Source: a virus. From it: 64,000 nt of DNA. The position numbers and the translations under genes were made by a program. The stretch spans positions 35,764 to 99,763 of IMG/VR virus record IMGVR_UViG_3300022939_000007; one strand, 5' to 3'. This document shows positions 27,972 through 64,000 of this stretch, piece by piece; position 1 is the stretch's first letter; each line of letters starts with the position of its first letter. The notes under the pieces are model-generated. The model did not search any database, was not told the DNA's origin, and saw nothing but the letters and a program-made list of their open reading frames with translations.

Positions 27972-30512
27972 TTATCCTTTAAACGGTGCTGTTGGTATGT
28001 TTGTAGTTTCATCTTCTGCACTGTATCTTGCATAATTACTTATTCTTAGATCTTGAACATAACCATGATAAGGCCAATTAATACCTGTAGCACTAGAGTA
28101 TTCACCTCCAATTATTATATGGTCTTTATCATAAGTAGTTGTTTTAGTACCAGATTGAGTGCTTCGTACACCATCAATCCAAGCTCTAAAAACATTACTA
28201 GAATCTCTACACACCGCTATATGATACCAAGTTCCTGTGCTCATAGCACCTGCTGCTCTAGAGAAGTTTATGTATCCACTATCATATATATCTACTCCAG
28301 TTCCGTTTGAATTAATTCTCATTTCAAGTTGATAATTTTCTAAACACCAAACATATCCAGAATTGAACGTACTTGTATTAACCCAGCATTCTATTGTCAA
28401 TTCGCCTGGAAGATAAATTTGGCTGTAGTGTCTTATATGATTAGGATTTGAGCCGGGGAAATACATTGATTTTGTATTAGCAAACTTAGCTTCAGCTGAT
28501 GAACCTGTTGCAGTGCCAAAAACTTTCATATTGCCTGTTTGAGCTTTATCTATAACAGATGCGTCTGTGCCTTTAACATGTAATACAGAATTTGTAGTGC
28601 TCTGTGGTGCTGTAGGTACAGTAATAGTAGAAGCTGTAGCATCAAACTGACTCGTGCCGACCTCATACTTAAAATCTGCAATAGTTCCCATTGCTGAATT
28701 CATTGCGGTGCCTGTTGATTCTCCAGCATAACCTACATAAAAATTAGCTAAACCAGACGCTGATATATTAATATTAGAAGTTGTTGTATTACATCTTTTT
28801 CCGTTTAAATAGTAAGATAAAGAGCCTCCGCTTCTACAGAACGCAATGTGATTCCAAGCATTAACCTGAACAGTGCTGTTTGTTTTTCCAGAAGCCATAT
28901 CTGCATAATTTGGATATCCCCATCTTACATCTAATTGACTACCACTTTGATATAATATGTCCCAGCCAGGACAGTTTGTCGGATATGAAACATAATTAGC
29001 ATCTCCGACAAGTTGTCTAGTAGTGCCTGGAGATGTTGTTGGATAATACCAAAATGAAACACAGAATGGATCTGTGCCTGATGGTTTTAGTGTGCTGGAA
29101 TGTGGAACAGAAAGATAATCATTGTCATTGGGCATGGAGACAGACCCACCGTGATCGCTTGCTGAGTATTCTAAGTTGTCGTAAGGGCCGAATGGTTTTG
29201 TTGAAGTATTGCCGTTTACTGTGATTGAGAGAGCGCTAGAAGAACCATCTGCTATATATGGAAGGTGGCAAGCAAGAAGTTGTGTATTTGTAATTGCAGT
29301 TAAGTGTGCGGTTGGTGGAGTGAACGCAGCAGAATATACAGCGGCACCTTTAACAAATCTAAAATCAGCAATATAACCAGTGAAATGTCTATTTACGGTA
29401 GTATTTGAAGAAGCCCCAATACGGATATTACTACCTCCTGTGGTAGATGCAGTTATTGAGGATGTGTAATTCTGAACACCATCAACATAAGCTGTAACTG
29501 TTGTTCCACTGTTCGTAATTACCCAAGCAAGATGATGCCAATTACCATCATTTATTGTACTAACTCCTGTATTGGGTGGATTATTAATCCAACCGGCTGA
29601 GTTTGAATAAAAAACTTGATAGCCGTTGTATAATCCAACTTCCATTCCGTTGTAGGGAGAAGATGGATCAAAATTACTAAATATTGCAACGTGTCCAGTT
29701 ACTGTCGTATTTACCCACGCTTCGATTGTTGTGTTTGATGTTTCGGGGAGAAGGTTAGTTGCTGTGGCAGATAGCTGTAAATAATCTGATCCATCGAAGT
29801 AAGTGCTATATCCACCATGCCGATATGGACTAAACGTACCTGCATGAGCATCGCCGTTTGCTGTGATTGTATGGTTGTTAACTGAACTATCGGTTATATT
29901 GTTGTTGTCTGATGTATCTACTGCTGTTGCTAAAAGAGTTGTATAATTACTGTTTGCAATAAAAAATTCCAGAGTGATTGATGTATTTGCATTCACTGCT
30001 CCACTAACACCATCAGTTGCATTAATTGTAAGAGTAAATGTTCCGAAATTAGCTTCATCGGTGCTAGGTGTAATAGTAAATACATTATCCGTTTGACTTA
30101 TCGTAGCAATACTACCAAGTCCAGATGTTGAATAACTCCATGTCAAAGGGAATCCTTCAGGGTCTGTAGAAACCCCTGTGATTACAGTAGGTGTTCCATC
30201 TATAGCAAGCGAATAAGTTCCATCTACTCCAGTGATTGCACTTGGAGAATCGTTTTGAACAGTTGCCACTTTATACCAACCAGTACCAGAATAGATATAA
30301 AGATTATTGTTTGCTTGAACGAATACTTGGTCACCATCAGTCATTCCAGTTTTTGCAATCAGTGCAGCCATATCTGCAACAGTCGAAACTGATGAACTGC
30401 CAGCCGCCGCGGCCCTCCATACTGTTTTTGTTGCATTGTATGTATATGTAACACCATTCGCTACATGCGTATCACCGTCTACTGGACTATTTGGAAAATT
30501 TACTGCTGCCAT
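27972..30512 (-). CDS. tail-fibre/adhesin protein with three LamG-like lectin domains
   Basis: A protein of 846 residues from the ATG at 30512 (MAAVNFPNSP), preceded by GGGAG. Modules: N-terminal head (1-35), linker with VFVQANNNLYIYSGTGWYKV (about 65-90), Ig-like domain (about 93-185), then three concanavalin/LamG-type domains. Each carries a TIEAWVN- or SFWYYP-type strand and an (H)HLAWV/HIAFCR/HIAVCR strand followed by a YxDG or YLNG turn, near 225-400, 435-620 and 650-840. LamG folds bind glycans, so this is a probable carbohydrate-binding fibre. Two nucleotides separate it from the upstream fibre gene. Confidence 0.82.
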   Translation of the reverse strand: MAAVNFPNSPVDGDTHVANGVTYTYNATKTVWRAAAAGSSSVSTVADMAALIAKTGMTDGDQVFVQANNNLYIYSGTGWYKVATVQNDSPSAITGVDGTYSLAIDGTPTVITGVSTDPEGFPLTWSYSTSGLGSIATISQTDNVFTITPSTDEANFGTFTLTINATDGVSGAVNANTSITLEFFIANSNYTTLLATAVDTSDNNNITDSSVNNHTITANGDAHAGTFSPYRHGGYSTYFDGSDYLQLSATATNLLPETSNTTIEAWVNTTVTGHVAIFSNFDPSSPYNGMEVGLYNGYQVFYSNSAGWINNPPNTGVSTINDGNWHHLAWVITNSGTTVTAYVDGVQNYTSSITASTTGGSNIRIGASSNTTVNRHFTGYIADFRFVKGAAVYSAAFTPPTAHLTAITNTQLLACHLPYIADGSSSALSITVNGNTSTKPFGPYDNLEYSASDHGGSVSMPNDNDYLSVPHSSTLKPSGTDPFCVSFWYYPTTSPGTTRQLVGDANYVSYPTNCPGWDILYQSGSQLDVRWGYPNYADMASGKTNSTVQVNAWNHIAFCRSGGSLSYYLNGKRCNTTTSNINISASGLANFYVGYAGESTGTAMNSAMGTIADFKYEVGTSQFDATASTITVPTAPQSTTNSVLHVKGTDASVIDKAQTGNMKVFGTATGSSAEAKFANTKSMYFPGSNPNHIRHYSQIYLPGELTIECWVNTSTFNSGYVWCLENYQLEMRINSNGTGVDIYDSGYINFSRAAGAMSTGTWYHIAVCRDSSNVFRAWIDGVRSTQSGTKTTTYDKDHIIIGGEYSSATGINWPYHGYVQDLRISNYARYSAEDETTNIPTAPFKG

Positions 30513-30513
30513 G

Positions 30514-31299
30514 TTACGCTCCCAATTCCAATGCAATAATTGTACTGATATATCTTCCACCAGTAGCATTATCCTGATCGTTGTTTGATCTATTAAGATG
30601 AAATGCGAAATTATTATCGTTATTTACATATAATTGATATATAACCTCAGATGTAGTTGCTGGTTCATCGATAAACTGTAAAATAAATGAATTTGCTTGA
30701 TTTGCATCAGAAGCAAGAGCTAAAGGAATAGATGTCCTTTGCCGAGACCCTGCCGCATCACCTATGAATATATCTTGATATGCGCCACCATCAATACTTC
30801 TTTTAAACCACGCTTTATATGTTGTTCCTTGTGTTCCATATGAGATTTGTGCAGTGAGATAAATTTTATTTGATGCAGAACTTGGTGTTATTGTAACAGA
30901 CATACCAGTTACTGCCATTTCTGTTCCGTTTGCAGTTCCAACAAATGTATCAGTTTTTGATGTAAATTGAGACTGTATGATACCGCTTGCCCCATCTGCT
31001 CCATCCGCGCCTGCTGTTCCATCTGCTCCATCTGTTCCCGCTGGACCTGCTGGGCCCTGTGAATTATTTGAGATTACCCATTGAGAACTTGTTCCATCAT
31101 TATAATATACATATGTTTCCAGAACACTTGGATCAAACCACATATCACCTTCTTTTGGATTTGTCGGCGCAGTTTCAGATACGGTATATAGAGAACCACT
31201 AGCATCCCACGCTCCAGATGTAGAGTCGAATGTGTAGGTTGTGTTTCCTACTAGTATAGTGTCTCCGTTATTTGGATTGCTTGGAAAATTGATTGCCAT
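30514..31299 (-). CDS. short fibre protein with collagen-like stretch
   Basis: A 261-residue protein. Modules: MAINFPSNPNNGDT head (1-35), a DTAP-type linker (VSETAPTNPKEGDMWF, about 40-75), then a collagen-like Gly-X-Y run of about 8 triplets starting GPAGPAGTDGADG (about 83-107), and a C-terminal beta-rich domain (about 115-261) like a trimeric knob. Prolines occur only in the X position of the triplets. Collagen-like rods are common in phage fibres and form trimers. Confidence 0.82.
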   Translation of the reverse strand: MAINFPSNPNNGDTILVGNTTYTFDSTSGAWDASGSLYTVSETAPTNPKEGDMWFDPSVLETYVYYNDGTSSQWVISNNSQGPAGPAGTDGADGTAGADGADGASGIIQSQFTSKTDTFVGTANGTEMAVTGMSVTITPSSASNKIYLTAQISYGTQGTTYKAWFKRSIDGGAYQDIFIGDAAGSRQRTSIPLALASDANQANSFILQFIDEPATTSEVIYQLYVNNDNNFAFHLNRSNNDQDNATGGRYISTIIALELGA

Positions 31300-48820: not shown

Positions 48821-51400
48821 TTATGTCATCATTTGTAGTTGAATGATACCAGGCCTTTTGTCATTTACTATATATAGATATCGCCCGTTTGAAGACCAAG
48901 TAAAATATGCAGGATTGTCTATACCTGTATATAATCTTTTTCCATCTGGAACCGTAAAAGTTCCAGTATTACCATTGTGTTGTATTGACCATCTACCGCC
49001 AGTATTAGCGTCAGTGTGGGTATAGTCAGTTATTAATTGCACTATACTTTTATCTTCAGGTCCAACATATATATTCTTACCTCTTCCATCATATCTAAAT
49101 CCATCAATTGAAGCAACTACTGGCATTTCTTCTCTATTATTTGCAGTAACAAGAACTCTAGTTGCAGTATTAAGATCCCAAGCAGTAGATAAATTCCACT
49201 GATGCATCCAACCACCACCAACCATAAATACTCTTGTTCCATCTAGTTTGAACTGAAGATCTGTAGGTTGTGAAAATGCTGGGGCGTCAGTTCCGCCAAA
49301 AGCAGCTGAATCGAAATCATAATATGAGTTATGAGTTAGTGTAGTAATATCGTATGGCGTTGTCATGTCAAACTCGTCAATACCATCTCCCACTGTTCCA
49401 CATACATACAGTTTTGTTCCGTCTGGTTTTAACGCAATCCCTCTAGCACTAGTTTCATATGTAAATATGCTTATACTACTTTTTCCATCATAGGTTGCTG
49501 TATTTACCATAAAGGGAGTAGCTAATGTGTATCCTATAATAACATATTCTCCACCCCAAACTAAGATATACATTTTTGTTCCATCTTCACTAATACACAT
49601 TGATTGAGTTTTAGTAGCTTTATCAACAAATACATTATCTATATCAACATGCATATAGTCATTAAAGTCTGGAAGATTTGCAGTATTTAAATCCCAAGCA
49701 GTAGATAAAGTATATCTAACAACAATATCTGATTGAGCGCCGACCTGATACATATAAACTCCGTCAGGACTAAATGTAATACCTTCTGGAGAACCTTCAT
49801 CCTGATAGCGTCCAAGATATACAGGCCTTATTGTATAGTCATAAACAGCAGTTGTAACATCCCAGGCAGTACCTAAATTGTATATGTCTATATCAGCACC
49901 TGTTCCCCCTTGTATATACATTATCGTTCCATCAGATTTAAATGCTAAATCATATGGATTAGCTTGTTGTCCAGAAACTGAGAAAGATCCTAGTTGAGTT
50001 GCTACAGATATTTCCCAAGGAGTTGGGCAGCTATAATTGTAGACAGTTTTATCGCCAGTCCCCACATAATACCAAGAAGACCCGTCTGGCTTAAAGAAAA
50101 GTCCGTGAGGATTTAGGCCAGGGCCTGGACCTACAGTCCTAGTTAAAGATGCAGTGCTAATATCCCAAGCAGTACTTAAAGTATATTGATGAAAAGTATC
50201 ATTTACATATCCAGTCATATAGAGTTCAGTGCCATCAGGTTTCCAAAAAGTAGCCTCTGGATTTGCCTCTTGAGAAGAAAAAGAAAATTCTTGAGTGTAG
50301 GTAACATTACTAAGATCCCATGCTGTAGCTAGGGTATACTCTCTTATTTTATCGCTATTCATCCCAGTAACATACATTTTCGTTCCATCTGTTTTAAATT
50401 TTACATCAGTAGGAACCAACTCCCTACCCCCAATAAAAGCGGCATTGGAAGTGCTCACAAAAGAAGCCGTAGAAATATCCCAAGCGGTTGATAGATTTAC
50501 TTCTATGATAGATTGAGTATTGTTACCTCGCGTAAAAAAAGAAGTACCATCAGGTTTGAAGAAAAGATCAGAAATACCTGAATCAAAATCAAAAGCACTC
50601 AAAATATACGTATCATGAGAAATAGTACTAATGTCCCACGCAGTTCCTAAAGTAAAAGAATTTACTTCATCATGCCCGGGCCCCGCCACATAAAGCTTTG
50701 TTCCATCAGGTTTAAAATCAAATGCATAGGGGTTAGTGTTATAAGAACTAAGTGAAATCTCTTGATTAAAAGTAGCAGTGCTTGTATCCCACGCAGTACT
50801 TAGATTATATTCAACCAATCTATCGCTGCTTCTTGATAATAGATACATTTTAGTTCCATCTGAACTCATACGCATACATACCTGAAGGTTAGCCATTTCT
50901 GCTTGAACATTAAGCGTTTTAGAAGAAGAACCAGAAGCGGTAGATATATCCCAGGCAGTACTCAACGTATAGTAATTAATTTCATCATTTCCTGTAGTGG
51001 GGTCGTTATTTCCACCAACGTACATTATCGTACCTTCTGGATTAAAGTAAATAGAGCGGCCGCCGTTATTTTGGTTTGTAGTTTCTTTTGTTTGATCAGG
51101 CACATAAGAAAGAGTCCTAACATCAAAGGGCACCCCAAAACTATACTTACGAACTATTTCATCATCGGCAAGAGTAAATAAATAATTACCATCATTTGAT
51201 ATATACAGATCTTCCCAGTCTACATCAAGTCTATGAATAGGAATACGACTACCTACATTATAAGGACCCTTTTCAATGCTAAACCCAATGTCATTGTTTG
51301 AAAAAACATTTAACTTAGTTTTTAAGAAATGCTCTTCTATATCAAATACCCCAGAAGTTCCTGTGATATTTTTGCCAATTATACCACCATTTGAGCTCAT
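48821..51400 (-). CDS. tail-fibre protein composed of about thirteen propeller repeats
   Basis: An 859-residue protein with its own N-terminus (MSSNGGIIGKNITGTSGVFD) rather than the MAINFPNSP head. From about residue 60 to the end it consists of about thirteen units of FxPDGTxxYxxGxxxDxIxxYxLSTAWDISTAT, for example KPDGTKLYVAGPG and LSTAWDISTASFV. Thirteen units could build two propellers of six or seven blades. The ATG overlaps the stop of the small structural gene upstream (ATGA). Confidence 0.82.
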   Translation of the reverse strand: MSSNGGIIGKNITGTSGVFDIEEHFLKTKLNVFSNNDIGFSIEKGPYNVGSRIPIHRLDVDWEDLYISNDGNYLFTLADDEIVRKYSFGVPFDVRTLSYVPDQTKETTNQNNGGRSIYFNPEGTIMYVGGNNDPTTGNDEINYYTLSTAWDISTASGSSSKTLNVQAEMANLQVCMRMSSDGTKMYLLSRSSDRLVEYNLSTAWDTSTATFNQEISLSSYNTNPYAFDFKPDGTKLYVAGPGHDEVNSFTLGTAWDISTISHDTYILSAFDFDSGISDLFFKPDGTSFFTRGNNTQSIIEVNLSTAWDISTASFVSTSNAAFIGGRELVPTDVKFKTDGTKMYVTGMNSDKIREYTLATAWDLSNVTYTQEFSFSSQEANPEATFWKPDGTELYMTGYVNDTFHQYTLSTAWDISTASLTRTVGPGPGLNPHGLFFKPDGSSWYYVGTGDKTVYNYSCPTPWEISVATQLGSFSVSGQQANPYDLAFKSDGTIMYIQGGTGADIDIYNLGTAWDVTTAVYDYTIRPVYLGRYQDEGSPEGITFSPDGVYMYQVGAQSDIVVRYTLSTAWDLNTANLPDFNDYMHVDIDNVFVDKATKTQSMCISEDGTKMYILVWGGEYVIIGYTLATPFMVNTATYDGKSSISIFTYETSARGIALKPDGTKLYVCGTVGDGIDEFDMTTPYDITTLTHNSYYDFDSAAFGGTDAPAFSQPTDLQFKLDGTRVFMVGGGWMHQWNLSTAWDLNTATRVLVTANNREEMPVVASIDGFRYDGRGKNIYVGPEDKSIVQLITDYTHTDANTGGRWSIQHNGNTGTFTVPDGKRLYTGIDNPAYFTWSSNGRYLYIVNDKRPGIIQLQMMT

Positions 51401-52086: not shown

Positions 52087-55000
52087 TTATCCTATTTTCT
52101 TTATCGTTAATATTGCTTGTCCAATCCAATAGTCTCCACTTTGATCGCTTTCTAAAATATATCTAATCCAATTATTTGCAGGCGTAGCATCTTCAAACGT
52201 AACTATTATACTATCGGGTACAGTTACTCCATTAATGTTAAAAGAGCCAGTGCCTGGGCTTAACCAACCAGCAGAACTAAAAGCACCAGTGCTTGCTTCC
52301 CATCCATGATATCTTTGGCCTGCTGTACTATTTCTTTCATATACTTCCGGCTGTACTGATATTTCGTATGTACCATTCTGAACAAAGCCTGAGAATTTAT
52401 CTCCACTAAATGTAATGCCAGTTAGTGTAGGATCTCTGTCTGAGCTATCTGGTGATAATCCGGCTGTATTAGCAGCATTTGCAAATGTTGCTTCGTACCA
52501 AGTTCCTACATTTTGTCCTAGATATGAACTACTTGAAACAGTTGAACCAGGCTGACTTGCACTTAGATAAAATTTTGTAAATGGAGTTGTTGAAGAAGAA
52601 CTTGAAGAACCAGTTGTAGTACTAGCAGCAGCACCACCAACTTGTATCCATTGAGAACTATCAGCATCAGTGTAATACAAATACAAATCAGCTGAATCTG
52701 ATTTGAACCAGAACTCTCCAGCACTTGGTGAAGTTGGTGCAGTATCAGATGTGGTTGCACCACCAGCAACATCTGCCCAAGAATAATCAGAACCATTCCA
52801 AGACAATACTTGTCCCGTAGACGCTGAAGATTGATTGAGATGTGTATCTACCATACTATCTGAATATGGAGTCGGGGTTCCAGTAAGATCTGAATATGAA
52901 CCTGAGAAGTTTCCAACAACAGAACCGGCGCCCATTCCACTATGATTTGTACAATAATAATATAAATCTGGTGTTGCGTGTGTGATTGCAATTTCAGTAT
53001 ATGCACCGGCAGAACCAGCAGTTCCGTTTGTAGTAACTCCTACCGTATATTCAACACCGCTGGCATGAGTGCCATCAGAGGTTGTTGAGAATCTTAGTGG
53101 ATGTGATCCATTTGAGGCATCTGATTGATCAAAACGATAAGTTCTGCCAGGCTCAAATGAAAGAGTTGCTTGTTGAATTCCATCAATGTAGAAATATCCA
53201 CCAGATGCAGTCACTGTCACAGTACTATACGCATTTGCTTTTGAAGCAATTTGATTGGTGATAGTTGTTGCAAAGTTAGGATCATCTCCTAGTGCAGCAG
53301 CCAGTTCATTGAGTGTATCAAGTGTTGCTGGAGCAGAATCCACAAGGTTTGCTACAGAAGTATCTACATAAGTTTCAGTTGCATATCCAGTAAGAGATGG
53401 AATTTGTGATGCAACGTATGCTTTTGTTGCATATGTACCCAAATCTGCACTTGTAAGTTCATCAGCAAAATCTAGAGCAAGAGATGTTGCATTGATAGCA
53501 GTACCAAGTTTTGCAACACCGCTAGTTGAAATTCCACCGCCATCTGTTACAAAATATTTTGTTCCCGTAGTAAGTCCAGAAAGTCCTGTATGAATTCCAT
53601 ACTCTAATGTTACATCAATAGTTGTTCCTGCTGATGCTGCAACCCCATGTAATTTAGTTGCATCAAAGTTAGATTCACCATATGCACCTTGTGTCATAAC
53701 TACTTCTGGATAGTTGCTAGCTAATGTATATGCTGCTGTATCTCCATCATTGAAGGGACTTGAATAAATCCATTTGTTAATGTTTTGAGGAAAGTCATCA
53801 GGCCCATTGATCTGACTGTCATTGGAACTGACCAAGTTTCCAGAATTGTCAAAATGATAATATCTAGTTACTGGATAGGTATCATTTGTATTCCACCAAG
53901 GAATAATCAATGTGGGTGCATTTGGAGAACTTCCAGTATTGCTGCCCTTTGTCCAACAGATATTTCCACGAACCTTTCCGACTTGGACATTGGCGCCACC
54001 CTGTATTGTAATATTACCAGATACATTTGTTACATTTAGATTCGCATCTGCACTATATAGCGCCATCTTCAGTCTATAAGGAGCATCTCCACCACCATCA
54101 GCCGGAGTAGTTGTGACTGTAGCAAGTAGTCCGTTTGTTGGGTGGAATTCCTGATGGTTTTGAATTTCGCTTGCACCTACACTATGTGTTCCAGATCTTG
54201 TAAACAAATCTGTTTGCGGCCCAAGGACTATAGTACCAATATCCCAATCTACTGTCGCAAATTTAATAATACCTTTTCGTGTGGCGCCAGACCCTTCTTG
54301 TCTGTAAACAGCAATTCTTGTTGGGGTTGCTGGATCAACTGCTGTATGTTCCCATTCAAATACTTCTGAAGATGAAGTTTCAATTTCTGGATAACTAGTA
54401 TCGAAAGTTTCAGTTGCAAAATCATAAGTAAATTTTCTTAAAGCAGCTTTATTGTTTGAATTTGGAAATTTTGCATACAGAGTTAATACATCACCACTAA
54501 ATCCACCATGATAAAATAGGCATCTATTGCCGCTGTGCCCTATACTAACAGATCCATTTCCACCCGAAAGATTGGATAGTCCATTTACTGTTGTGCCTGT
54601 GATAGTACCTACTTTTAAAATAGAGTTTCCATTACTTGAAGCAGCAAGATAAATGAAAGTATCTTCGTATGTTCCTGCTGGTCCAAAAAATGCGTGTGGG
54701 TCTCTGATGGATAAATGGTTTCCGCTTGCGAAGGCAGTCCCAGCACTAATAGTAGAACCGCTTTTAATAAATGGAACAAGCATGTTGTTATCCGAATGCC
54801 CAGTGCCGCCCGGGAAAAGTAACATTGCTTTTTCTCTTGTGGAGTGGTGTGCAATCGTTCCAACATAGGAACTCGCACCCCCGAAACCACTTGTCATTTG
54901 AGCGTTGTTTGCAGAAACACGAACAAATGGATAGTTTGTGGGTTCAACTACAGTCACAGTTCCATCAGTATTCAGCATCACAACATCATTTACAGCAGCT

Positions 55001-58000
55001 GTATTTGTTGATGTATATTCTACAACACTAGGATTTGGTACATCAGATGCCGTAATATAACCAGCACCGTTAGTCAATTGATTGTTGTTTGTTGGAATTG
55101 TTGGTGTATTGGTTAAGTCATTATATGAACCAGATGTTGCAACTGTTGCAAGAGATGGTGTATTAGATAAGTCATTATAGTTACCAGATGTTGCTACTGC
55201 TGCAAAATCACTTACTGGTATGTCATATTGAAAAATTCTCCCCCCATAGGAGCCCTTATCAGACATAATGTATAGTTTTGTACCGTCTGGTTTGAAGAAT
55301 ATATCTGCTGGGCCATTACCACCATGAATAGATGCGGGCCATTGACTCCAAGAACTGGCTGTTGTTAAATCAAACGCTGTTGAGAAAGTTGTGTAGTAAA
55401 CAATATCGACACCATTTTTTATAAATGCGCCGGTTTTACCATCAGGGCTAATTGCAAATCTTGCCCCCGAATGTCCTGTGGTTGGAGTTGCTAGAGTTTG
55501 TACTGCACTCGCTGATGCTGTTGATAAATCCCAAGCAGTTGTTAAATCAAATCTTTGAATTTCATTTGGATCTGAGTTTCCAGTATTACTTTGAAATGTA
55601 AGATAGATTTTAGTTCCATCTTGCGAGAACCTAAAATCCCACAGAGGAAATTCGTTTGTGGTGTATGTATTAAATGGTTGATACCAAGCGTTGCCGGAAA
55701 CACCATCGTTGGGAGGCCTGATGATATTATTGAAGCCGGAACTTGAATATGTGTAAATTGCGCCGCTACTATTGTTTTGTGTATCTTGTCTATCAAGAAC
55801 AAACGCTTTGATTCCATCGTATGAAATTCTATATGTTGTGGGTTTGGCATCTGTACTTGCACTGCCATAATAATTACCACTTGTTGATGGTCTAATGTAC
55901 GAACTACCAACATGCGTCCATGTACTGCTCGTATCCCATGGCGTTGCTAATGTGTAATATATACCAGAACCAAACATTTCTGCTTGAAAACGTATTGCAG
56001 TACCAGCCGCATACATTAGATTTCCATTGATATCAAATGTATCTGTTTCGTTGATATGTAAACTTCCCTCGGACGATAGTAAATTAATATTCTGCGATTG
56101 CCCTTGGTCATTTGTTGCGTCCATATCGGCAAAACCACCTTCGATATTGATTTTCTCAGCTGGAGTGCTCCAAGCATAATCAGAACCATCCCACACAAGC
56201 ATTTGATCGGTTGTCGCTGTACTTTGATTTAGATGTAAATCTACACTTGCATCGCTATAACTACCAGCGGCTGTGATTTGATTGTTAACATAAGTTTCGG
56301 TTGCATATCCATTCAAATCGGATGCTTCTAGTTTATTTGCCAGTGAGTTAGTAATCGTTGTGGAGAAATTAGCGTCATCTCCTAGTGCAGCAGCCAGTTC
56401 ATTGAGTGTATCAAGTGTTGCTGGGGCAGAATCTACTAGGTTTGCTACAGAAGTGTCTACATATGCTTTTGTTGCATAGGTAGCAAGACTTGCATCAGTT
56501 AATTCATCTAAAAGATCAACAGCAAGTGTTGTGCTTGACATAGCAAGTCCAACTTTAGCATTGTTTGTATCTGGAGTTGCCGAAAGACTACCATCTGATA
56601 ATACATAATATTTTGACCCAGCTGTCAAACCAGAAAGTCCAGTATGAATACCTCCCTCTACAGTGACATCAATTGTTGTACCAGCAGACGCAGCAATACC
56701 ATGAATTTTAGATGCATCTAGATTGGATTCTGTATATACACCTTGAGTTGGTTGGGCAAACAATTTAACAACCAAACTGGTTGCATTTGTGTTGCCTGGC
56801 GCCGATATTGATCCTTTAGCACTCCTGAAAGGATCCATTTGTATTTTGCCTGGATATCCAAATCCAGTGTTCTTTGCATAAGAGTTGTTGCCGTGCGTAA
56901 CTCTACTTGTACCAATAACTATATTTAAAGATGAATTTACTGAGAAATGGGTTATGAACGAACCATCCTTACTGTTACTAGTATTGTTTAGATAATAATA
57001 CCCTGCGTTAGTTAGTGCAAACATATTACTGTTCTTGTAGAATGCCATATTTCCAGAAAGATGGCCATAAGTTCCACCTTGATTATAGCCTAGTGAGTAT
57101 TCTGAGCCTTCCGCCACTGCTGAATTTCCTGTTGTCGAAAATGCTCTAAGTTTTAGACTGTTACTTCCTCCACCAACACTCCAAGCAACAACAAAATGTT
57201 CACTAGAATCTCTCCATGCCACATGCGCTGGTGCGTCAGTACCAAAATTTGTGTTGAACGAAGTCAATCCATATGCTGTTCCGACAGTAATATTTCCTGT
57301 ACCCCAATCTATATCACCAATTCTGAGATTTCCAGAGGCATCAACTCCTGCAAATCTACCCTCTGTGAGTTTTGAGAAGTCCAATGATCTACTATCGATA
57401 GGATGTGGTATAGCAAAATCATCGCTATATTGGATTGTAGCATTTCCATCCCACGTAACTCTAAATATTCTACAATTACTAGAATTGTCTCTGTATGCGC
57501 CGATGATTTTGTAAGAACCGGCAGTACTTCCGGCATGGTCATAGTACCAATTAATATGATCGAGTCGAGAATTATAGGTAGGTCCGCTGTTAGAACTATT
57601 AGTTCCTGTATCACTCCAAGTGATTCCAACGCCACCCATTGTGCCTACGGCATGAATAATTAAATCTGATGATCCTCCATTCTTCTTCGGCCCTAAAATT
57701 AAAAATTTATCTGGATTGTCTGGACTTCCAATCACATACGGATTATCTGATGTAGCAAGTCCCAATGAGTTCCCCAATGAGGCAAGATCTTGATATTCGG
57801 TTCCATAAGTCCAAGTCTCAGTTGAACTATTATATTCAGCAGAAACAATTTTCATTTCAAAAATACTGCCAGGCGCCTCATCAAAGGCTACAGAGATGTA
57901 CTTGTTATCAGTTTGTGTTGGAAATAACCAATATCCAACATGAGCTGCGACCAAACCATTAGTATTACTAATAGTGTAGCCTTCATTATTTGGAAGAAGT

Positions 58001-61000
58001 TGTTGATATGACCCATTATAACCTTGATTTGTAAGTTGCTCTGGAGAAGTTGCAACTTCAACTGGAGTCACAGTTCCATCAGTATTTAACATTACAACAT
58101 CATTTACAGATGCAGAAGATGTAGATGTATATTCTACGATATTGGTGTTTGGAATATCGGCAGCGGTGATATATCCGGCACCATTAGCCAACTGATTATT
58201 ATCTGTTGGTTGTGCTACCCATTCATAATCTGTACCATTCCAGCTTAAAACTTCATTTGATGTCGCTGTACTTTGGTTTAGATGTAAATCTACACTTGCA
58301 TCGCTATAACTACCTGCCGCCGTGATTTGTTGACCGACATATGATTTTGTCGCATATGTACCTAAATCTGCACTTGTAAGTTCGTCAGTAAAATCTAATG
58401 CAAGAGATGTTGCATTGATAGCAACACCAAGTTTGGCATTTTTAGAGTCTGGTGCCGTCGCCAAAGTTCCATTGTCTATTACATAATATGTTGACCCAGT
58501 AGTAAGTCCAGAAAGTCCTGTATGAATTCCAAACTCCAAAGTTACATCAATAGTTGTTCCGGCAGTTGCTGCAATACCATGAACTTTAGATGCATCTAGG
58601 TTGGACTCTCCATAAGGAAACTGAAGATGTTTTACTCTATATTCATGTCTATAGTTTCCACTATCATATCTCCTATTTTTCCAAGAAATTGAAAACTGTC
58701 CCGATTGATGTGGATTATCAAATTGTAACGGAACTGAAGAATGACTCCATCCACTTGTTTGAACGGCCCCGGCAGTGTTTGTAATACTTGTCCCATTCAC
58801 ATCCCATATTTCATAAAAAGACTCTAAGGTATAGTTGCTTTTGTCATCGTATGAAACCATGAATGTACTAGATTTTTTGGCAAATTTAAGGTCGTATGGA
58901 GTACCGTTATAGCTATTTGCGGTAGTGTCCCATGTAACTGTACTTCCCACAGAAGTGAGAGTGTGATTACTATCAATGGAGAATTGTCGTAGATATGAGT
59001 TAGAATTTGGATAAAACGAGAGATTGACTCGATATGCCGCAACAGCATTTCCACTGATTGGATCAATTCCTACTGCTGTAGCAATTGAATTTAGATTGAA
59101 ACTACCACCAAAAGTTGCGGTTTGAGTATCCCAGTCAACAATACCTGCGACGATCGATGTAGTTCCATCTTTTGCAATAAACTTACCTTCAGTATTGTGG
59201 TCAAAAGAAAATCCTGATTTTCCAGTAACATCAACGGGATCGCCATATGTTAGTGTGGTTCCGTCCCATTCGATTCTAACGAGTTTTTTGTTTCCGCTAG
59301 CATCACTATATTCCATGATAAATTTGTCTGTTGTGCCTGGAGTACTTCCAGCATAATCGTATTGGAATCTTTGAGAGCCAGAAGAATAACCTTCGGTGTT
59401 GTAATCTGGATGTGTAATGTAAGTTCCATCCCAAGTAACAGCAGTTCCACTAACTGTACCCTGCAATGACATAACTTGGTGTCCAGTTGCAGATGTGGAC
59501 TTGCCTATAACTAAAATTCTATCTGGATCGACAGAACTAAAAAGAATATATGGTTCTTCTCCTTGAGTGGTACTTAATCCTCTAGTACCGTTAGCTGCAT
59601 TATAATCGCTAAAGAGGTATTCAGTACCATACGAAAAGGTTCCACTGTTGTTTATTTGAATACAACCATTCCATCCATTACTTTCTACCCACATTGTGAA
59701 ATATTTGTCTGGTGTTGAAGAACCCCCAACAATTGCAGATTCTCCAGATGCATTATTTTCAGTGCCTGCCGAGGTAATGTAATTTTCACCCTTATTCGCT
59801 ATAAATGGATAATTTGTAGGTTCAACTACAGTCACAGTTCCATCAGTATTCAACATTACAACATCATTTACAGCAGCTGTATTTGTTGAAGTATATTCTA
59901 CAACATTTCCACCAGAGACATTGTTTGCAACATAGTTTTGTACATATGTTTCTGTTGCAAGACCTGTTAAGTCTGCGTTTGCAACGGTTTCAATCCATCC
60001 TGTAGTTTTATAGATATAGAGTTTTTGTGTATCTTCAACAAATGCAATGTCACCAACTGTGTTTCCGACGGCTGGAAGATACGTTGCATCACTATAGATG
60101 TTGACAGATGCAACCAAAGATGTTCCATCTGGTGCAATCAGAGTTGCAGTACCAGCAACTTCTTTAATCTTATTCTCAAAACTTGGAGTATTTTCTACAT
60201 ATGTTGCCAAGTCTTGTGGTACAAACTTGTTTGTCGATGAATCATACACTAGACACATTTGTGATGTAAGTGTTGGTAGAGGACGAAGTTCAATTGTCTG
60301 TACATGTCCTTCTTGGTTGTGCTGGCCATATATTAAATAGTTGCCATTCGCGTTTGTTTCAACTGCCAAATCCTTAACGCGAATAATACCACGCATATTT
60401 GAATGATTTCCACACTGATAGTATAGAATATCTGGTGCGTTTGACGGCACAACAAATGTGATTGTTCCAGTTTCATTTCTAGAACCAGTAACACCAGAAG
60501 TCCACTCACCAAAATATGTTCCTGCTGAAAAATTGGTGCCGTTGTCGGTTGTAAAGTAGAATGGATGGCCAGTTGCATTGATATTGACAGTATATGTACC
60601 ACCACGATAAAACGGCCCAATCTCTGGATTGTTTCCACTAGCAGTACCACTAAACACATAAGCTCCTGTGGTAGAAGTGACATCATAAGAAACAGACGGA
60701 GCAACGAGTGTAGGTAGTGTGATAGAAGAAGGAACACTCACAGCAAGTCTTTGAACATCTTGTGCAGTCCCGCCGTTGATGTCTGGGTGACTATCATTTA
60801 CAATTGATGTAGTTACCCAAGGAACAAGGTTATCATCTCCAGCGCCCTCAATCCATTTCAATTTGAAATCGTGCCTTTGCGTCATTGATCCATGAACAGT
60901 ATGTGCAAAGTTATTGATTTGATATGTTCCCTCCAAATAAAGTGGAACAACGGTTTGTGGTGAATTTGTAATTGCAAGTCTGGCAAAAGGCAAAGCGGAT

Positions 61001-61560
61001 TGTGTCCAAGTCCACTGCCATGCCGTTCCGTGGCCTGCTGTTGGATCATCTACTTGAATTTCGAGTGTTTCTGGTGTTACAGAAAGATCAAAGTTCAGAA
61101 TATCATCTGAACTAAATGTTGTTTCTCCAAGATACAATGTGTTTGAACTCAGATATAAATCTCTAAATTTGTTCGTTGCAGAACCCAAATCAAGAGTTTC
61201 GTTAGTTGCAGGGATGATTGCAGAACCCAATGATTGCAGATTTGCATCTGACATATATTTGTTGGAAATTCCTTCTAGGATATCATCAGAGGTTACGGAA
61301 GGTGAAAGAGCAGATTGAGAAGTATTTCTAACTTGTTTTAGGGCCTGTGACAGTTTAATGACTTCATCCGTAGTTGCACCAGAAGATAGAGTTTGTGCTC
61401 TCGAATCAATTGCAGCTTCAATGTCAGTATCTTCAGTCAAACCAACTGATTTTGCCGCCCTTGCAAGTGCCAAAAGTTCATCTACAGTTGCTGTAGGAAT
61501 ATCATTTAATAATCTTGTACGAATTCCACTAATCGATGTTGAAAGATTGGTATCTGCCAT
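52087..61560 (-). CDS. giant tail-fibre protein (3157 aa) with cupredoxin-like domains
   Basis: Head MADTNLSTSISGIRTRLLND with the ETLDLGSATNKFRDLYLSSNT segment, as in the 35924 and 38186 genes. Near residues 290-395 and 2795-2885 lie two cupredoxin-like domains: GHPFYFTT...YYQCGNHSNMRG and SHPLRFST...YYYCTNHSGMGAG, each offering His, Cys, His and Met as in type 1 copper sites. Between them are several large repeats with VVEYTSTNTAAVNDVVMLNT, SKVHGIAATAGTTIDVTLEFGIHTGL and SAPATLDTLNELAAALGDD (typical T4-like fibre shaft). Each is followed by a long SPDGxT-type propeller-like region. A DTAP linker and a small C-terminal domain end the protein. It could span the length of a long tail fibre. 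Confidence 0.85.
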   Translation of the reverse strand: MADTNLSTSISGIRTRLLNDIPTATVDELLALARAAKSVGLTEDTDIEAAIDSRAQTLSSGATTDEVIKLSQALKQVRNTSQSALSPSVTSDDILEGISNKYMSDANLQSLGSAIIPATNETLDLGSATNKFRDLYLSSNTLYLGETTFSSDDILNFDLSVTPETLEIQVDDPTAGHGTAWQWTWTQSALPFARLAITNSPQTVVPLYLEGTYQINNFAHTVHGSMTQRHDFKLKWIEGAGDDNLVPWVTTSIVNDSHPDINGGTAQDVQRLAVSVPSSITLPTLVAPSVSYDVTSTTGAYVFSGTASGNNPEIGPFYRGGTYTVNINATGHPFYFTTDNGTNFSAGTYFGEWTSGVTGSRNETGTITFVVPSNAPDILYYQCGNHSNMRGIIRVKDLAVETNANGNYLIYGQHNQEGHVQTIELRPLPTLTSQMCLVYDSSTNKFVPQDLATYVENTPSFENKIKEVAGTATLIAPDGTSLVASVNIYSDATYLPAVGNTVGDIAFVEDTQKLYIYKTTGWIETVANADLTGLATETYVQNYVANNVSGGNVVEYTSTNTAAVNDVVMLNTDGTVTVVEPTNYPFIANKGENYITSAGTENNASGESAIVGGSSTPDKYFTMWVESNGWNGCIQINNSGTFSYGTEYLFSDYNAANGTRGLSTTQGEEPYILFSSVDPDRILVIGKSTSATGHQVMSLQGTVSGTAVTWDGTYITHPDYNTEGYSSGSQRFQYDYAGSTPGTTDKFIMEYSDASGNKKLVRIEWDGTTLTYGDPVDVTGKSGFSFDHNTEGKFIAKDGTTSIVAGIVDWDTQTATFGGSFNLNSIATAVGIDPISGNAVAAYRVNLSFYPNSNSYLRQFSIDSNHTLTSVGSTVTWDTTANSYNGTPYDLKFAKKSSTFMVSYDDKSNYTLESFYEIWDVNGTSITNTAGAVQTSGWSHSSVPLQFDNPHQSGQFSISWKNRRYDSGNYRHEYRVKHLQFPYGESNLDASKVHGIAATAGTTIDVTLEFGIHTGLSGLTTGSTYYVIDNGTLATAPDSKNAKLGVAINATSLALDFTDELTSADLGTYATKSYVGQQITAAGSYSDASVDLHLNQSTATSNEVLSWNGTDYEWVAQPTDNNQLANGAGYITAADIPNTNIVEYTSTSSASVNDVVMLNTDGTVTPVEVATSPEQLTNQGYNGSYQQLLPNNEGYTISNTNGLVAAHVGYWLFPTQTDNKYISVAFDEAPGSIFEMKIVSAEYNSSTETWTYGTEYQDLASLGNSLGLATSDNPYVIGSPDNPDKFLILGPKKNGGSSDLIIHAVGTMGGVGITWSDTGTNSSNSGPTYNSRLDHINWYYDHAGSTAGSYKIIGAYRDNSSNCRIFRVTWDGNATIQYSDDFAIPHPIDSRSLDFSKLTEGRFAGVDASGNLRIGDIDWGTGNITVGTAYGLTSFNTNFGTDAPAHVAWRDSSEHFVVAWSVGGGSNSLKLRAFSTTGNSAVAEGSEYSLGYNQGGTYGHLSGNMAFYKNSNMFALTNAGYYYLNNTSNSKDGSFITHFSVNSSLNIVIGTSRVTHGNNSYAKNTGFGYPGKIQMDPFRSAKGSISAPGNTNATSLVVKLFAQPTQGVYTESNLDASKIHGIAASAGTTIDVTVEGGIHTGLSGLTAGSKYYVLSDGSLSATPDTNNAKVGLAMSSTTLAVDLLDELTDASLATYATKAYVDTSVANLVDSAPATLDTLNELAAALGDDANFSTTITNSLANKLEASDLNGYATETYVNNQITAAGSYSDASVDLHLNQSTATTDQMLVWDGSDYAWSTPAEKINIEGGFADMDATNDQGQSQNINLLSSEGSLHINETDTFDINGNLMYAAGTAIRFQAEMFGSGIYYTLATPWDTSSTWTHVGSSYIRPSTSGNYYGSASTDAKPTTYRISYDGIKAFVLDRQDTQNNSSGAIYTYSSSGFNNIIRPPNDGVSGNAWYQPFNTYTTNEFPLWDFRFSQDGTKIYLTFQSNTGNSDPNEIQRFDLTTAWDLSTASASAVQTLATPTTGHSGARFAISPDGKTGAFIKNGVDIVYYTTFSTAFDLTTASSWSQWPASIHGGNGPADIFFKPDGTKLYIMSDKGSYGGRIFQYDIPVSDFAAVATSGNYNDLSNTPSLATVATSGSYNDLTNTPTIPTNNNQLTNGAGYITASDVPNPSVVEYTSTNTAAVNDVVMLNTDGTVTVVEPTNYPFVRVSANNAQMTSGFGGASSYVGTIAHHSTREKAMLLFPGGTGHSDNNMLVPFIKSGSTISAGTAFASGNHLSIRDPHAFFGPAGTYEDTFIYLAASSNGNSILKVGTITGTTVNGLSNLSGGNGSVSIGHSGNRCLFYHGGFSGDVLTLYAKFPNSNNKAALRKFTYDFATETFDTSYPEIETSSSEVFEWEHTAVDPATPTRIAVYRQEGSGATRKGIIKFATVDWDIGTIVLGPQTDLFTRSGTHSVGASEIQNHQEFHPTNGLLATVTTTPADGGGDAPYRLKMALYSADANLNVTNVSGNITIQGGANVQVGKVRGNICWTKGSNTGSSPNAPTLIIPWWNTNDTYPVTRYYHFDNSGNLVSSNDSQINGPDDFPQNINKWIYSSPFNDGDTAAYTLASNYPEVVMTQGAYGESNFDATKLHGVAASAGTTIDVTLEYGIHTGLSGLTTGTKYFVTDGGGISTSGVAKLGTAINATSLALDFADELTSADLGTYATKAYVASQIPSLTGYATETYVDTSVANLVDSAPATLDTLNELAAALGDDPNFATTITNQIASKANAYSTVTVTASGGYFYIDGIQQATLSFEPGRTYRFDQSDASNGSHPLRFSTTSDGTHASGVEYTVGVTTNGTAGSAGAYTEIAITHATPDLYYYCTNHSGMGAGSVVGNFSGSYSDLTGTPTPYSDSMVDTHLNQSSASTGQVLSWNGSDYSWADVAGGATTSDTAPTSPSAGEFWFKSDSADLYLYYTDADSSQWIQVGGAAASTTTGSSSSSSTTPFTKFYLSASQPGSTVSSSSYLGQNVGTWYEATFANAANTAGLSPDSSDRDPTLTGITFSGDKFSGFVQNGTYEISVQPEVYERNSTAGQRYHGWEASTGAFSSAGWLSPGTGSFNINGVTVPDSIIVTFEDATPANNWIRYILESDQSGDYWIGQAILTIKKIG

Positions 61561-63267: not shown

Positions 63268-64000
63268 TTATGAATAATATATATTTGTGCTGTGGGTGGT
63301 GTTTTTATCACTACTTGTTGATTGTGCCTGAACTTGAATAGAAGTTACTGCACCAGAACCAACCCAAGCTGTGCCTGGCACCGTAACATTTCTACTATTG
63401 AGAAAATATGTTCCCGATCCAGTAGTGGCATCAATATAAATTAAATAATCAAAATCGATTACACTTCCATCGCCGTCGTTCTGCACTGATCCGGCCGCTC
63501 TTTGCGTGCCATTTACGAATAACCTTCCCTGACCTTGACTATTGTTTTGACTGCTTGTGCTTCCTTTTATTAGGATACCTTTAGTTCCAGATGGTATTGT
63601 TGCACTACTATTTGAGGTGCCATTATTACTACCTGTAGCACTTACGGTTTCGGTTGAACTCCACGCACCAAAGACAACGGAAGAAGAAGTGTCAATAAAA
63701 CTAAATGTTCCGCTTCCATCAGTTGATAAAACTTGACCATTAGTTCCATCTGTGATGCCTAAATCTGTAAGAGAAGTAGCAGTGTCAATAAAACTAAATG
63801 TTCCGCTTCCATCAGTTGATAAAACTTGACCATTAGTTCCATCTGTGATGCCTAAATCTGTAAGAGAAGTAGCAGTGTCAATAAAACTAAATGTTCCGCT
63901 TCCATCAGTTGATAAAACTTGACCATTAGTTCCATCTGTGATGCCTAAATCTGTAAGAGAAGTAGCAGTGTCAATAAAACTAAATGTTCCGCTTCCATCA
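63268..64000 (-). CDS. tail-fibre protein, C-terminal part (5' end outside window)
   Basis: The frame is open from the stop at 63268 to the window's right edge (about 244 codons). The upstream part is a 31-residue repeat, TDLGITDGTNGQVLSTDG plus SGTFSFIDTATSL. This is followed by SSSVVFGAWSSTETVSA, a GTKGILIKGSTSS...RLFVNGTQRAAG segment and a C-terminal VQAQSTSSDKNTTH region. DGTNGQVLSTDG-type repeats are well known in shafts of T4-like marine phage fibres. A GTG at 63486 could be mistaken for a start, but the coding sequence clearly continues upstream. Confidence 0.82.
   Translation of the reverse strand, partial: DGSGTFSFIDTATSLTDLGITDGTNGQVLSTDGSGTFSFIDTATSLTDLGITDGTNGQVLSTDGSGTFSFIDTATSLTDLGITDGTNGQVLSTDGSGTFSFIDTSSSVVFGAWSSTETVSATGSNNGTSNSSATIPSGTKGILIKGSTSSQNNSQGQGRLFVNGTQRAAGSVQNDGDGSVIDFDYLIYIDATTGSGTYFLNSRNVTVPGTAWVGSGAVTSIQVQAQSTSSDKNTTHSTNIYYS
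63691..64000 (-). repeat. perfect 93-bp tandem repeat in fibre gene (at least 3.3 copies)
   Basis: The 93-bp unit starting gtcaataaaactaaatgttc begins at 63691, 63784, 63877 and 63970; the last copy is cut by the window end. All complete copies are identical base for base, and the unit keeps the reading frame (31 residues). Perfect identity implies recent amplification or continuing copy-number change. Confidence 0.95.

What the first reader, a model, noticed from the sequence alone, without database searches (positions are those of the whole stretch)
52087..61560. Cupredoxin-like domains with full copper-ligand sets in a giant tail fibre
Seen: GHPFYFTT...YYQCGNHSNMRG (encoded near 60390-60580) and SHPLRFST...YYYCTNHSGMGAG (near 52930-53110), offering His, Cys, His, Met as in plastocyanin/azurin-type sites. 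Known: these residues make type 1 copper centres. Inference: the fibre binds copper for stability, for redox or for docking to a host copper protein.
Basis: partly seen in the sequence, partly recalled or inferred. Interest (0 to 1): 0.66.

Follow-up and report, generated by a model that had tools for sequence, protein, structure and literature searches.

The report
Copper-site domains in marine phage fibres
A giant tail fibre of a T4-like aquatic phage carries two small domains that look like blue-copper proteins, and the four residues that would hold the copper are among the most conserved in a domain family found in hundreds of aquatic viruses, so many virus particles may carry copper in their attachment apparatus; no metal has been measured yet.

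Summary
ORF 52087-61560 (-), 3157 aa, holds two domains, each with one His...Cys-x2-His-x2-Met set (H332/C383/H386/M389 and H2820/C2870/H2873/M2876). Chance gives about 0.001 such C..H..M motifs in this protein. The two domains belong to one family, widespread in T4-like cyanophages, pelagiphages, OM43 phages and uncultured viruses. With a profile in which the four ligands were masked, 205 of 222 non-redundant (90%) domains keep all four. In a sample whose seed peptides contained no ligand, 55 of 55 readable domains keep them. Cys and the second His are always lost together (12 of 12); the axial Met is the only ligand lost alone. AlphaFold models are confident (pLDDT 95 and 88) and their best PDB matches are almost all cupredoxins. 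Masking the ligands removes the sequence match to solved copper proteins, so fold and ligand set, not overall sequence, link them to cupredoxins. The C-terminal domain of gp9 of cyanophages Syn9, S-SM1 and S-RIM14 has the full site. A conserved mononuclear copper-type site is well supported; metal identity, geometry and role are untested. A structural or adhesive role seems likelier than electron transfer. I found no report of it in the open papers searched.

The parts
52087..61560 (-). giant tail-fibre-type protein, 3157 aa
   Evidence: ORF; PHROG tail fibre/tail protein matches up to 2e-40
60361..60726 (-). cupredoxin-like domain D1 (protein residues about 279-400)
   Evidence: family alignment A1; AlphaFold pLDDT 95.2, pTM 0.86; Foldseek PDB top hits cupredoxins
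60565..60567 (-). D1 ligand His332
   Evidence: invariant column H54 of A1
60394..60414 (-). D1 ligand loop C383-x2-H386-x2-M389
52912..53259 (-). cupredoxin-like domain D2 (protein residues about 2768-2883)
   Evidence: alignment A2; AlphaFold pLDDT 87.7, pTM 0.81; Foldseek PDB top hits rusticyanins
53101..53103 (-). D2 ligand His2820
   Evidence: invariant column H53 of A2
52933..52953 (-). D2 ligand loop C2870-x2-H2873-x2-M2876

Best explanation
Each domain is a small eight-stranded cupredoxin-type beta-sandwich built into the fibre as a module. A His just before one strand and a Cys-x2-His-x2-Met loop between the last two strands form one mononuclear His2-Cys-Met site that binds copper in the assembled virion. 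SHOWN: motif, family, conservation under ligand masking, joint loss of Cys and His, predicted fold. INFERRED: that metal is bound, that it is copper, and what it does. The most likely role is to pin the C-terminal loop and strand so that a short module exposed in sea or lake water is stiff and stable, and possibly to present the metal-capped face to a partner (host surface or neighbouring fibre protein). Long-range electron transfer is less likely.
For: Ligand columns H, C, H are invariant and M at least 90% in 65 sequences with mean column identity 32%. With ligands masked in the search profile, 205/222 nr90 domains keep all four, and the ligand columns are four of the five most conserved columns. 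Seeds without any ligand residue give 55/55. His and Cys codons alternate CAT/CAC and TGT/TGC with the amino acid kept. Losses are joint (C and H2 both lost in 12/12 cases) or hit only the axial Met (to E, Q, D), the ligand that varies most in type 1 sites (last point from general knowledge). Confident all-beta models; PDB fold hits are AcoP, pseudoazurin with amicyanin loop, rusticyanin, laccases, Cu nitrite reductases. Unmasked profile vs PDB: best hits are Cu nitrite reductase 2.9e-5 and plastocyanin 1.2e-3; the plastocyanin alignment matches ligand to ligand. C-x2-H-x2-M is the amicyanin loop spacing (CTPHPFM, printed for 2vmj), and 11/65 members hit the NCBIfam amicyanin model, best 3.1e-6. 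Full site also in the gp9 C-terminal domain of Syn9, S-SM1 and S-RIM14.
Against: No metal measurement. Ligand distances not measured. TM-scores to solved cupredoxins are only 0.4-0.6. With ligands masked the sequence profile no longer finds blue copper proteins in the PDB beyond one weak copper oxidase match at E 1.6, so sequence homology outside the site is not shown. The residue after the first His is Pro (199/222) rather than the Asn/Ser usual in small blue proteins (general knowledge). Neither window domain reaches the Pfam Copper-bind cut-off.
Confidence: 0.66

Rival explanations
1. Cupredoxin-derived fold in which the four residues are kept for packing and hydrogen bonding, without any metal in the virion.
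For: No metal data exist; the domain is used as a generic beta-sandwich building block in fibres, collagen-like fibres, gp9 and subtilisin-like proteins; ligand-less relatives persist.
Against: If packing were the reason, single replacements of Cys or His would be expected; instead Cys and His are lost together and otherwise fixed. Ligand-less copies suggest that the fold does not need these residues.
Confidence: 0.17
2. A metal site of the same residues that holds another metal in nature (zinc or iron) and serves structure alone.
For: The ligand set can bind several metals (general knowledge); HxH motifs proposed to bind iron are reported in a marine phage fibre (PMC11705849).
Against: His2CysMet with amicyanin spacing on a cupredoxin fold is the signature of mononuclear copper sites; fold hits are copper proteins.
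Confidence: 0.1
3. Redox-active blue copper centre that exchanges electrons with a host surface or periplasmic protein during adsorption.
For: Ligand set and fold as in electron carriers; cyanophages also carry petE plastocyanin as a separate metabolic gene (PMC3037559).
Against: The domain is one piece of a large structural protein expected outside the cell; the residue next to the Cys, a Tyr in plastocyanin's electron path (general knowledge), is variable here; near relatives of this phage lack psbA, and G001 lacks a Pfam Copper-bind gene.
Confidence: 0.06

Closest known systems
Amicyanin and plastocyanin/azurin (type 1 blue copper proteins; NCBIfam TIGR02657, Pfam PF00127)
   Same: Predicted fold, order and spacing of ligands (H...C-x2-H-x2-M), ligand topology
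   Different: Module inside a virion fibre, not a free electron carrier; Pro after the first His; window domains below curated cut-offs
Rusticyanin and AcoP
   Same: Best fold matches in the PDB
   Different: Free periplasmic electron-transfer proteins; 14-19% identity
At5g54830-like domain (Pfam PF25489)
   Same: 21 of 65 phage family members match at E < 0.1, best 6.8e-7
   Different: Named after a plant protein; the window's D1 and D2 do not match it
Iron-binding HxH fibre motifs (T4 long fibre tip, from general knowledge; Alteromonas phage R22Y, PMC11705849)
   Same: Proposed metal in a phage tail fibre
   Different: His-only motifs for iron; here one mononuclear site inside each globular domain with a Cys and a Met
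T4 gp9-type baseplate wedge/tail fibre connector of cyanophages (PHROG 677)
   Same: Carries a D1-like domain at its C terminus with the full ligand set
   Different: A protein of about 410 aa that shares no more than this domain with the giant fibre

Membership tests
cupredoxin fold superfamily | eight-stranded Greek-key beta-sandwich | tested here: met
   8 strands in each model, pLDDT 95.2 and 87.7; PDB fold hits almost all cupredoxins, though TM only 0.4-0.6; strand connectivity itself not inspected
type 1 copper site | His, Cys, His (plus axial Met) in the order H...C-x(2-4)-H-x(2-5)-M | tested here: met
   both domains, 205 of 222 family members
type 1 copper site | first His next to a strand; C-H-M at the end of one strand and in the loop before the last strand | tested here: met
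   DSSP of D1: H54 before E56-59, C105 ends E100-105, M111 before E112-118
type 1 copper site | ligand atoms within bonding distance of one point | not testable with these tools
   no coordinates released
type 1 copper site | copper bound, about 600 nm band, EPR signal | not testable with these tools
   needs protein
small blue copper proteins | Asn or Ser after the first His | tested here: not met
   Pro in both domains and in 199 of 222
Pfam PF00127 Copper-bind | score over gathering cut-off | tested here: not met
   D2 13.3 bits against 21.2; D1 none
NCBIfam TIGR02657 amicyanin | match to the model | tested here: not met
   window D1 none; D2 not listed on its own; 11 of 65 family members match at E < 0.1
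blue copper proteins | sequence similarity outside the ligands | tested here: not met
   masked profile finds none in the PDB with significance
virion tail fibre protein | homology to tail fibre families | tested here: met
   PHROG tail fibre families

The most novel reading that the evidence does not exclude
Many marine T4-like phages are copper-carrying particles: conserved cupredoxin modules in gp9 and long fibres hold copper that is needed for adsorption, a copper counterpart of the iron 'Ferrojan horse' idea, linking phage infectivity to copper supply in the ocean.
Probability: 0.12. Interest if true: 0.85.

Novelty: new variant of a known kind. Interest (0 to 1): 0.6.

Why it matters
A complete and selected copper-type site in the attachment apparatus of very abundant viruses would make their virions metalloproteins of a kind I found no report of in the papers searched, with consequences for adsorption, particle stability and trace-metal budgets. 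It is directly testable with cultured cyanophages (Syn9, S-SM1, S-RIM14, P-SSM2) and small recombinant domains.

Tried and rejected
Chance: rejected. Ordinary Ig-like sandwich: rejected as the main reading because Foldseek lists cupredoxins ahead of almost everything else, although a few antibody chains appear lower down. Disulphide role of the Cys: unlikely, one Cys per window domain and 7 in the whole protein. Seed bias (search peptides containing the motif): tested with queries cut before the Cys loop and with a ligand-masked profile. Overall sequence homology to blue copper proteins: not shown after masking (a smaller alignment than that). A scan for cellular relatives in genomes gave one Marinoscillum MAG only, but it rested on one peptide pattern (NATGHPFY) and is not a census. 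Search for a photosystem gene to point to the host: none in three relatives, so the host stays open. Paper searches for cupredoxin or copper-binding in phage tails found no report; the library holds open-access papers only. Supplementary proteomics tables of PMC3037559 could not be read, so detection of gp9 in the S-SM1 virion was not checked.

Full report
OBSERVATION. The ORF at 52087-61560 (-) encodes 3157 aa. The protein has 7 Cys in all; a C-x2-H-x2-M motif is expected about 0.001 times per shuffled protein and two were never seen in 2000 shuffles. The protein is a tail-fibre type by PHROG matches, in a T4-like genome (UvsX, DnaB-like helicase, exonuclease, ribonucleotide reductase, thymidylate synthase) whose helicase is 58-62% identical to that of cyanomyoviruses. 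The record is a virus contig of 99763 bases; a near-identical relative is 203815 bases long. No psbA was found in three relatives, so a cyanobacterial host is not indicated.

FAMILY. D1 and D2 are 26-27% identical to each other, and each iterated profile finds the other domain. By tblastn the domains occur in 113 and 270 phage records, mostly T4-like cyanophages, also Pelagibacter and Methylophilales phages and a Prochlorococcus podovirus. The eleven cultured phages checked have 1-5 matches per genome, some of them ligand-less. Carrier proteins include gp9-type baseplate/tail-fibre connectors (C-terminal end), proximal long tail fibres, a collagen-like fibre of P-SSM2 with one domain set between collagen repeats, and a subtilisin-like protein.

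LIGAND TEST. In 65 aligned domains (mean column identity 32%) the invariant columns are the first His, a Tyr two before the Cys, the Cys and the second His; the Met is at least 90%. Because some seed peptides held the motif, I repeated the search with queries cut before the Cys loop and with a profile in which the four ligand columns were masked. Of 222 nr90 domains 205 keep H, C, H, M. The set, whose seed peptides contain none of the ligands, has 55 of 55 readable cases. The five most conserved columns are Y(-2), H1, H2, M and C. All 12 domains that lost the Cys also lost the second His; the only ligand lost alone is Met (to E, Q, D). Relatedness was not corrected for, so this is a pattern, not a P value. 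His and Cys codons alternate between their synonymous forms, so the residues are held by selection. Ligand-less copies exist, for example in the close relative G001 (L166) and in the gp10-like neighbours of Syn9 and S-SM1 gp9, which suggests that the fold can do without the residues.

FOLD. AlphaFold models: D1 pLDDT 95.2, pTM 0.86; D2 pLDDT 87.7, pTM 0.81; both all-beta or nearly so, with eight strands. Best PDB fold matches for D1: AcoP (6e-5), pseudoazurin with an engineered amicyanin loop (2.7e-4), rusticyanin (4e-4), laccases and copper nitrite reductases; for D2: rusticyanins (1.4e-3 and weaker), then copper nitrite reductase. TM-scores are moderate (0.4-0.6). The unmasked sequence profile also finds copper proteins first and aligns ligand to ligand with plastocyanin, but the masked profile does not: the sequence link rests on the ligand motif, the fold link is a separate line of evidence. 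The spacing C-x2-H-x2-M equals the amicyanin loop CTPHPFM, as printed for entry 2vmj, and 11 of 65 members match the amicyanin model.

MECHANISM. I take the domains to be cupredoxin-type modules with a working mononuclear copper-type site (confidence about 0.66). That metal is bound, and that it is copper, is inferred from ligand set, topology and selection. The role is inference: the metal would tie the last loop and strand to the sandwich and stiffen a small exposed module; it may also take part in docking. Electron transfer is less likely: the protein is structural and expected outside the cell, and the residue beside the Cys that serves as electron path in plastocyanin (general knowledge) is variable here. 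Metal in phage fibres has a proposed precedent with iron (PMC11705849).

NOVELTY. The fold and site are a known kind; their place in phage virions, at this scale and with this conservation, was not found in any open paper searched, and the Pfam and PHROG libraries do not name the window's two domains as copper domains. I file it as a new variant of a known kind.

Noticed in passing
63680-64000 (-): Near-perfect tandem array of a 93-base unit (31 aa, DGSGTFSFIDTATSLTDLGITDGTNGQVLST) running off the window end in a fibre-like ORF.
   Followed up: no
48821-51400 (-): 859-aa protein with lactonase-type beta-propeller repeats (Pfam 2e-15), related to residues 1868-2114 of the giant fibre.
   Followed up: partly
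27972-30569 (-): 865-aa protein with laminin-G/lectin domains (2.6e-43, three stretches), in the same run of fibre-like genes.
   Followed up: no
L406 3560-5239 (P-SSM2_028): Collagen-like phage fibre with a single cupredoxin-type domain with full ligands set between the collagen repeats.
   Followed up: no
L408 2357-4363 (S-H9-1): Subtilisin-like protein with a C-terminal cupredoxin-type domain with full ligands; similar S8 proteins in other cyanophages match by fold.
   Followed up: no
L166; L441; L442: Ligand-less relatives of the domain in the near-identical phage G001 and in gp10-like proteins of Syn9 and S-SM1, next to gp9 with the full site.
   Followed up: partly
L170: Marinoscillum MAG protein with two successive domains of this family, both with H, C, H, M; cellular or prophage origin not settled.
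   Followed up: no
BFVD A0A481Z6J5, A0A481YVH3: Structural matches in giant viruses (Pithovirus, Marseillevirus) named only 'Beta-sandwich protein'; ligands not checked.
   Followed up: no
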